Below the pieces are notes generated by a model that worked only from the letters and a program-made list of their open reading frames with translations, was not told the origin of the DNA and did no database searches. A stretch of 64,000 nt of DNA, taken from the NCBI RefSeq assembly GCF_000735345.1, contig NZ_JMPJ01000018.1:62001-126000 (forward strand), written 5' to 3'. Shown here piece after piece: positions 7,241 through 8,242 of this stretch. Positions within the stretch are counted from its first letter, which is position 1; each line of letters opens with the position of its first letter. Made by a program: the position numbers and the translations under genes. The stretch comes from Ewingella americana ATCC 33852. GTDB taxonomy: Bacteria > Pseudomonadota > Gammaproteobacteria > Enterobacterales > Enterobacteriaceae.

Positions 7241-8242
7241 ATGAGTCAGAATACGCTGAAAGTTAACGAGTTACATGATGATGTAGATTTCGATGAGAAC
7301 AGCGCTGAAGCCTTTGACGAGAAAGCAAATGTCGAAGAGACTGCCGATAACGACACTATTGATGCGGATGCTGAAGAAGAGTTGTTATCGCAGGCTGTAA
7401 GCCAACGAGTGCTGGACGCAACTCAACTGTACCTTGGTGAGATCGGTTACTCTCCTCTGCTTACCGCAGAAGAAGAGGTTTATTTTGCACGGCGTGCGCT
7501 GTGAGGGGATGTTCCATCTCGCCGCCGTATGATTGAAAGTAACTTGCGTTTGGTGGTTAAAATAGCCCGCCGCTACAGTAATCGCGGACTGGCACTGTTG
7601 GATTTGATCGAAGAAGGTAACTTAGGTCTGATCCGCGCAGTTGAAAAGTTTGACCCAGAGCGCGGTTTCCGTTTTTCAACTTACGCTACATGGTGGATTC
7701 GACAGACAATTGAACGGGCGATTATGAATCAAACCCGTACCATTCGTTTGCCAATCCATATCGTTAAAGAACTGAACGTTTACTTGCGTACTGCACGTGA
7801 ACTTGCACATAAACTTGACCATGAGCCAAGTGCTGAAGAGATTGCTGAGCAACTCGACAAACCGGTCCATGACGTCAGCCGTATGTTGCGCCTGAATGAG
7901 CGTATTACCTCAGTAGATACCCCGTTGGGTGGTGACTCTGAGAAAGCGCTGTTAGATATTCTGGCCGACGAAAAAGAAAACGGTCCTGAAGACACCACGC
8001 AAGACGACGATATGAAACAGAGTATCGTGAAGTGGTTATTCGAGTTGAATGCAAAACAACGTGAAGTTCTGGCCCGCCGCTTTGGCCTGTTAGGTTATGA
8101 AGCAGCGACGCTGGAAGATGTGGGCCGTGAGATCGGCCTGACGCGTGAACGAGTTCGTCAGATTCAGGTTGAAGGGTTGCGCCGCCTGCGCGAGATTTTG
8201 CAGGCACAAGGGCTGAGTATCGAAGCTCTATTTCGCGAATAA
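7241..8242 (+). pseudogene. rpoS: RNA polymerase sigma factor RpoS, interrupted by an in-frame TGA at codon 88
   Basis: The gene is otherwise intact: 334 codons from ATG 7241 (good AGGAG at 7230-7234) to TAA 8240-8242, with all sigma-70 regions clearly recognisable. Codon 88, bases 7502-7504, is TGA. It follows the conserved YFARRAL and precedes GDVPSRRRMIESNLRLVVKI. RpoS normally has Arg at this position, so a single C-to-T change of CGA to TGA explains it. Upstream lie 87 residues (the N-terminus and region 1.2). Downstream, the same frame has an ATG at 7529 opening 237 residues that keep regions 2 to 4, but without a well-placed Shine-Dalgarno. The product should be a truncated, inactive N-terminal piece unless UGA is read through or translation restarts. 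A sequencing error cannot be excluded. Confidence 0.9.

What the first reader, a model, noticed from the sequence alone, without database searches (positions are those of the whole stretch)
7502..7504. rpoS carries an in-frame TGA at codon 88
The sequence shows a full-length, otherwise clean rpoS frame of 334 codons with one TGA exactly where RpoS has Arg (ARRAL-R-GDV). A single C-to-T change of CGA explains it. Loss or attenuation of rpoS is a well-known source of variation among enterobacterial strains. An ATG at codon 97 in the same frame could give a 237-residue protein keeping sigma regions 2 to 4, but it lacks a good Shine-Dalgarno. If real, the general stress response would be reduced or abolished, or partial function may survive by readthrough or restart.
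Basis: partly seen in the sequence, partly recalled or inferred. Interest (0 to 1): 0.75.

Follow-up and report, generated by a model that had tools for sequence, protein, structure and literature searches.

The report
Stop codon inside Ewingella-like rpoS gene
One bacterial strain related to Ewingella carries a premature stop signal in the gene for its main stress-response switch (RpoS), most likely a recent loss of a kind often seen in this gene.

Summary
In the rpoS frame (7241-8242), between nlpD and mutS, codon 88 is TGA (7502-7504) and the rest is open. The genome is Ewingella-like; 5 of 5 held congeners have an uninterrupted rpoS with arginine there. Against the nearest sister the gene shows no other amino-acid difference, and 13 synonymous ones after the stop, so the stop looks young. 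No tRNA reading UGA is among 38 distinct tRNA sequences (an incomplete set) and no scored tRNA-Sec candidate passes the cut-off. ATG97 would start a 237-residue protein with regions 2-4 but without region 1.2, and lacks a usable Shine-Dalgarno at normal spacing. Best reading: a real, recent null or near-null rpoS allele. The kind is well known: 4 of 270 family genomes with an rpoS match carry an in-frame stop, and a published E. coli strain with a frameshift at the equivalent residue makes no detectable RpoS (PMC3074542). Reads were not available, so a sequencing error is not excluded. Restart at codon 97 is possible but probably minor. Sound but ordinary.

The parts
7241..8242 (+). rpoS frame, 334 codons including the terminal stop, interrupted at codon 88
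   Evidence: only match above the RpoS cut-off in the genome, 475.8 bits, 1 TGA inside; translation
7502..7504 (+). in-frame TGA at codon 88
   Evidence: Arg 78 and Lys 37 in 115 aligned loci
7241..7504 (+). 87-residue product expected from the normal start; holds most of sigma region 1.2 only
   Evidence: PF00140, 28 of 34 profile positions
7529..8242 (+). possible restart frame from ATG97, 237 residues, sigma regions 2 to 4
   Evidence: PF04542, PF04539, PF04545; weak pairing with the 16S tail at 2-9 bases spacing
7503..7508 (+). SD-like GAGGGG overlapping the stop, too far from ATG97 for normal initiation
   Evidence: -7.9 to -8.4 kcal/mol at 17-19 bases from ATG97
7509..7532 (+). seven-codon +1 frame whose stop overlaps ATG97 as ATGA; speculative reinitiation relay
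   Evidence: sequence; ATGA in 115 of 115 loci and a +1-frame start codon in 92 of 115
6165..7190 (+). nlpD, intact, upstream neighbour
   Evidence: name from the E. coli annotation under the match
8399..10954 (-). mutS, intact, convergent neighbour (name recalled from the translation)
   Evidence: 851 aa, 99.8% identical to the G001 frame, no stop

Best explanation
A recent nonsense substitution has inactivated rpoS, or nearly so, in this strain. Translation from the normal start ends after 87 residues, inside sigma region 1.2. That peptide lacks regions 2 to 4 and so cannot act as a sigma factor (established knowledge of sigma-70 family domains). The cell would then have little or no RpoS-dependent general stress response. 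Shown: the stop, the single copy, the otherwise open frame, the intact relatives. Inferred: the null effect, the age, and the selective cause (nutrient limitation, poor carbon sources, or laboratory keeping, by analogy with E. coli).
For: TGA at codon 88 and no other stop. Only RpoS-class match in the genome. 5 of 5 congeners uninterrupted. No other amino-acid difference from G001 in the whole gene, with 13 synonymous differences, all after the stop; under the assumption of no constraint after the stop this puts the loss in about the last 14% of the branch (9-31% for other splits). No UCA-anticodon tRNA among 38 distinct sequences. Same pattern elsewhere: 4 of 270 family genomes with an rpoS match have an in-frame stop, and in the three of these whose genus has other sampled genomes those are intact. 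ECOR28 of E. coli, with a frameshift after R85 (the equivalent residue), has no detectable RpoS (PMC3074542 section 6).
Against: No reads or phenotype were available. The frame after the stop is perfectly kept, which would also fit a restart product under selection. The SD-like sequence at the stop and the ATGA at codon 97 leave room for weak reinitiation. Only one genome of the species was seen, so whether other strains share the stop is unknown.
Confidence: 0.83

Rival explanations
1. Partial function by restart. Ribosomes that end at codon 88 reinitiate at ATG97, directly or through the seven-codon +1 frame that ends on the ATGA there, and make a 237-residue sigma factor without region 1.2.
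For: ATG97 lies 24 bases after the stop; the product matches Pfam regions 2, 3 and 4; SD-like GAGGGG at the stop; no amino-acid change from G001 in codons 89-334. E. coli rpoS with a stop at codon 33 restarts internally and keeps partial activity (PMC2763269, passages).
Against: No pairing with the 16S tail at 2-9 bases before ATG97 (+1.5 kcal/mol; 94.7% of 1051 plus-strand ATGs do as well or better). The E. coli restart gives a protein lacking residues 1-53, so its site lies before this stop and cannot serve here. Region 1.2 would be missing. The bases between the stop and ATG97 show no change special to this genome. ECOR28, with a lesion at the equivalent residue, shows no detectable RpoS, though that antibody test might miss a truncated product.
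Confidence: 0.08
2. Sequencing or assembly error, or a minority variant in the sequenced culture; the strain's rpoS is intact.
For: Draft assembly of 92 contigs; reads not available; a single base is at issue.
Against: Of 22 G001 ORFs that align to the window, only rpoS has a stop inside the gene (a second flagged stop lies before the shared start codon). Errors that hit exactly a nonsense site in a gene known for recurrent loss are less likely than a real mutation (inference).
Confidence: 0.06
3. Readthrough or suppression of the UGA gives enough full-length RpoS for function.
For: UGA is the leakiest stop codon (general knowledge), and the frame after it is kept.
Against: No UCA anticodon among 38 distinct tRNA sequences and tRNA-Trp has the ordinary anticodon. 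tRNA-Sec: no scored match over the cut-off (150 of 604 candidates scored). The tRNA set is incomplete (no Glu or Ile tRNA in it).
Confidence: 0.03

Closest known systems
Natural and culture-selected rpoS null alleles of Escherichia coli (ECOR strains, VTEC strain N99-4390, succinate-selected mutants)
   Same: Single nonsense or frameshift lesions in an otherwise intact rpoS; ECOR28 has its frameshift after R85, the residue equivalent to window codon 88, and no detectable RpoS (PMC3074542). Loss can be selected on poor carbon sources (PMC2700278).
   Different: Another genus; no phenotype or protein data here; TGA at this codon is not in the ECOR table read.
E. coli K-12 rpoS amber allele at codon 33 with internal restart
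   Same: A premature stop early in rpoS with a possible restart downstream (PMC2763269, passages).
   Different: Its restart product lacks residues 1-53 only, so it starts before the stop seen here. A restart at codon 97 would also lose region 1.2.
rpoS lesions found here in other family genomes (G130, G150, G091, G179)
   Same: One lesion in one genome while the other sampled genomes of its genus are intact (G130, G150, G179). G130 has a TGA at window codon 85, three codons before this one.
   Different: G150 has a TAG near the C-terminus, G091 a TAG in region 4 and no sampled congener, G179 an in-frame deletion of 26 residues (window 86-111).

Membership tests
RpoS (sigma-S) gene | profile match above the curated RpoS cut-off | tested here: met
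   475.8 bits against 378.7, read through one TGA by the search tool
RpoS (sigma-S) gene | location after nlpD | tested here: met
   nlpD 6165-7190 directly upstream
RpoS (sigma-S) gene | sigma regions 1.2, 2, 3 and 4 in one open frame | tested here: not met
   region 1.2 lies in the 87-residue piece, regions 2-4 after the stop
rpoS loss-of-function allele | lesion in a gene that is intact in close relatives | tested here: met
   5 of 5 congeners uninterrupted
rpoS loss-of-function allele | no RpoS protein or activity | not testable with these tools
   needs immunoblot, catalase or glycogen tests
stop-dependent internal restart as in E. coli rpoS codon 33 amber | restart site after the stop that keeps region 1.2 | tested here: not met
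   first in-frame ATG, GTG or TTG after the stop is ATG97, past region 1.2
UGA read as an amino acid (suppressor or selenocysteine) | a tRNA that reads UGA | tested here: inconclusive
   none among 38 distinct tRNA sequences and no scored tRNA-Sec over cut-off, but 150 of 197 and 150 of 604 candidates were scored and some tRNAs are missing from the set

The most novel reading that the evidence does not exclude
The stop creates a relay: ribosomes ending at codon 88 are held by the SD-like GAGGGG at the stop, use the +1-frame ATG at 7509, end on the ATGA at codon 97, and there start a sigma factor without region 1.2. The strain would then have a rewired or partial RpoS rather than none. A TGA three codons away in a second species (G130) and an in-frame deletion of residues 86-111 in a third (G179) would be parallel cases of N-terminally altered sigma-S.
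Probability: 0.04. Interest if true: 0.6.

Novelty: new member of a known kind. Interest (0 to 1): 0.2.

Why it matters
The stress and stationary-phase behaviour of this strain may not be typical of its genus, so physiology measured on it could mislead. It also adds cases outside Escherichia to the recurrent loss of rpoS: 4 of 270 family genomes with an rpoS match carry an in-frame stop. Beyond that it is ordinary.

Tried and rejected
Suppressor or selenocysteine reading: not supported, no fitting tRNA found, with the limits given in the membership test. General decay or a poor assembly of the window: rejected; 22 of 26 G001 ORFs aligned to the window, and only rpoS has a stop inside the gene; the other flagged stop, near 53.1 kb, lies before the shared start codon. 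Mutator background through mutS: mutS is intact. A hotspot in codons 85-111: 3 of 5 lesions fall there, but random placement gives 3 of 5 within 27 codons in 15% of draws, so no claim. A compensating ribosome-binding change before ATG97: none special to this genome. Selection for the +1-frame relay: its elements are widespread in intact genes (ATGA 115 of 115, a +1-frame start 92 of 115). Literature: 'Ewingella' with 'rpoS' gave 2 papers, neither opened, each with 1-2 mentions of rpoS; the searches listed no title or abstract that describes this allele (one search found no paper). The megablast against E. coli genomes (5367 of 5426 genomes match, none over 80% of the query) only confirmed gene identity. 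No tRNA lies in the window. The base rate is a lower bound: 122 of 392 family genomes had no match at 1e-100, and 5 of these 122 were looked at further.

Full report
Observation. The rpoS frame starts at ATG 7241 and ends at 8242, after nlpD and convergent with mutS (nlpD and rpoS also by the E. coli annotation under the match, mutS recalled from its translation). Codon 88, bases 7502-7504, reads TGA; no other stop lies inside. The RpoS profile finds this place in the genome (4.87 Mb, 92 contigs) at 475.8 bits with one TGA inside, the only match above the cut-off of 378.7; three others score 286.1, 147 and 77.4 bits, which I take to be RpoD-, RpoH- and FliA-like from size and score.

What the genome is. 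Five other genomes of the genus are held. G002 has rpoS on a contig of 501,960 bases, the length of the record of Ewingella americana E4, and G004 on one of 45,775 bases, the length of the 'Enterobacterales bacterium AwEntero' contig. The window genome is therefore Ewingella-like. Its nearest relative at rpoS is G001, 98.6% identical.

Relatives. 5 of 5 congeners have an uninterrupted rpoS with arginine at the place. In 115 aligned loci, where at least four contigs occur twice, the residue is Arg in 78 and Lys in 37; one locus, L090 (Pseudoalteromonas flavipulchra), has a stop elsewhere in its rpoS.

Age. Between the window and G001, codons 1-87 show no difference; codons 89-334 show 13 synonymous and no amino-acid differences. 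If 6.5 of the 13 fell on the window branch, about 21 amino-acid changes would be expected had the gene been unconstrained for the whole branch; none was seen, so the loss falls within about the last 14% of it at 95% (31% if 3 fell on it, 9% if 10). This assumes that no product of the 3' part is under selection.

Domains. The 87-residue piece matches only sigma region 1.2 (28 of 34 profile positions). The frame from ATG97 matches regions 2, 3 and 4 and aligns to residues 94-330 of the RpoS chain of 5ipl; the E. coli protein has 330 residues (recalled), so window codon 88 corresponds to E. coli residue 85. Region 1.2 contacts the promoter below the -10 element in sigma-70 factors (recalled).

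Restart. At 2-9 bases before ATG97 there is no favourable pairing with the 16S tail (+1.5 kcal/mol, against -6.5 for the rpoS start and -8.6 for nlpD); 94.7% of 1051 plus-strand ATGs in the window do as well or better. One start nearby in the set, ispD (name recalled), also scores poorly (+1.7), so a poor score alone does not exclude initiation. A good match, GAGGGG, overlaps the stop, 17-19 bases from ATG97 (all). A seven-codon +1 frame, 7509-7532, ends on ATG97 as ATGA. Its elements are widespread in intact genes, so it is no adaptation of this strain, though it could carry some reinitiation.

Readthrough. ARAGORN on 49 loci, which by their coordinates cover the 59 tRNA matches of the genome, gave 38 distinct tRNA sequences: none with UCA, and a tRNA-Trp with CCA. 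No tRNA-Sec match passes its cut-off; the best, 41.5 against 47 bits, lies on an ordinary tRNA match. Limits: 150 of 197 and 150 of 604 first-look candidates were scored, and no Glu or Ile tRNA is in the set.

Assembly and network. Of 26 G001 ORFs in the compared region, 22 align to the window and only rpoS has a stop inside the gene. Crl, the RpoS partner (role recalled), is uninterrupted in 6 of 6 genomes. No reads could be seen.

Base rate. Of 392 genomes drawn from the family, 270 have an RpoS match at 1e-100. Stops were read for all 270: 150 rows (counted, none with a stop), 79 genomes, 36, and 5 congeners. Four have an in-frame stop: this genome (TGA), G130 (TGA at window codon 85), G150 (TAG near the C-terminus) and G091 (TAG in region 4). 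G179 has an in-frame deletion of window residues 86-111. The other sampled genomes of the genera of G000 (5), G130 (3), G150 (3) and G179 (4) show no stop; G091 has none sampled. This looks like repeated, recent, terminal loss. It is a lower bound, because frameshifts and large deletions fall among the 122 genomes without a match. Of the 5 of those examined, G031 (5.2 Mb, complete) and three small genomes show only matches below the RpoS cut-off, and G032 (49% complete) has rpoS in pieces.

Known cases. In PMC3074542 (section 6 read in full) nonsense or frameshift lesions were found in all sequenced ECOR strains without detectable RpoS, and the authors put rpoS-defective strains at 20-30% of natural isolates. 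ECOR28 there has a frameshift after R85 and no detectable RpoS. In PMC2700278 (abstract, section 7, passages) loss of RpoS is selected by growth on succinate, with predicted premature termination in all catalase-deficient mutants sequenced. PMC7527412 (passages) says that laboratory domestication may lead to rpoS attenuation, citing a paper that is not held. PMC2763269 (passages) reports that the codon-33 amber allele can restart to give a protein lacking residues 1-53 with partial activity; that start lies before the present stop.

Conclusion. Shown: the stop, the single copy, the intact relatives. Supported under stated assumptions: young age and no suppressor. Inferred: loss of function and its cause.

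Noticed in passing
window 11154-48129: About 37 kb beside mutS that is absent from G001 at this place, apart from a 153-base match at 12131-12283. It holds a type VI secretion cluster (matches to VasE, IcmF, Hcp, a protein kinase and a ClpV-like ATPase) and a large Rhs frame (name recalled from its translation).
   Followed up: partly
window 11470-12192 (- strand): A Fic/DOC family protein with a GTG start at the edge of that island.
   Followed up: no
window 58671-63512: A second stretch absent from G001 at this place; by its translations a transporter and N-acetylglucosamine (nag-like) genes (names recalled).
   Followed up: no
window 6951-7501: 551 bases at the end of nlpD and the start of rpoS are identical to G001 (0 of 551), against 34 of 786 differences in the rest of nlpD and 13 of 738 in rpoS after the stop; the tract is also the most conserved part against the other four congeners. 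Regulatory constraint or recombination could explain it.
   Followed up: partly
L007, codons 94-96 of rpoS: G001 differs from the window at three adjacent arginine codons, all synonymous.
   Followed up: no
L142, L140, L141, L143 (genomes G130, G150, G091, G179): Four further rpoS lesions in other species: TGA at window codon 85, TAG near the C-terminus, TAG in region 4, and an in-frame deletion of 26 residues.
   Followed up: partly
L090: The rpoS of the Pseudoalteromonas flavipulchra record also carries an in-frame stop in the second half of the gene.
   Followed up: no
genome G031 (5.2 Mb, one contig, 100% complete): No RpoS-class match, only two matches below the cut-off: a candidate for complete loss of rpoS.
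   Followed up: no
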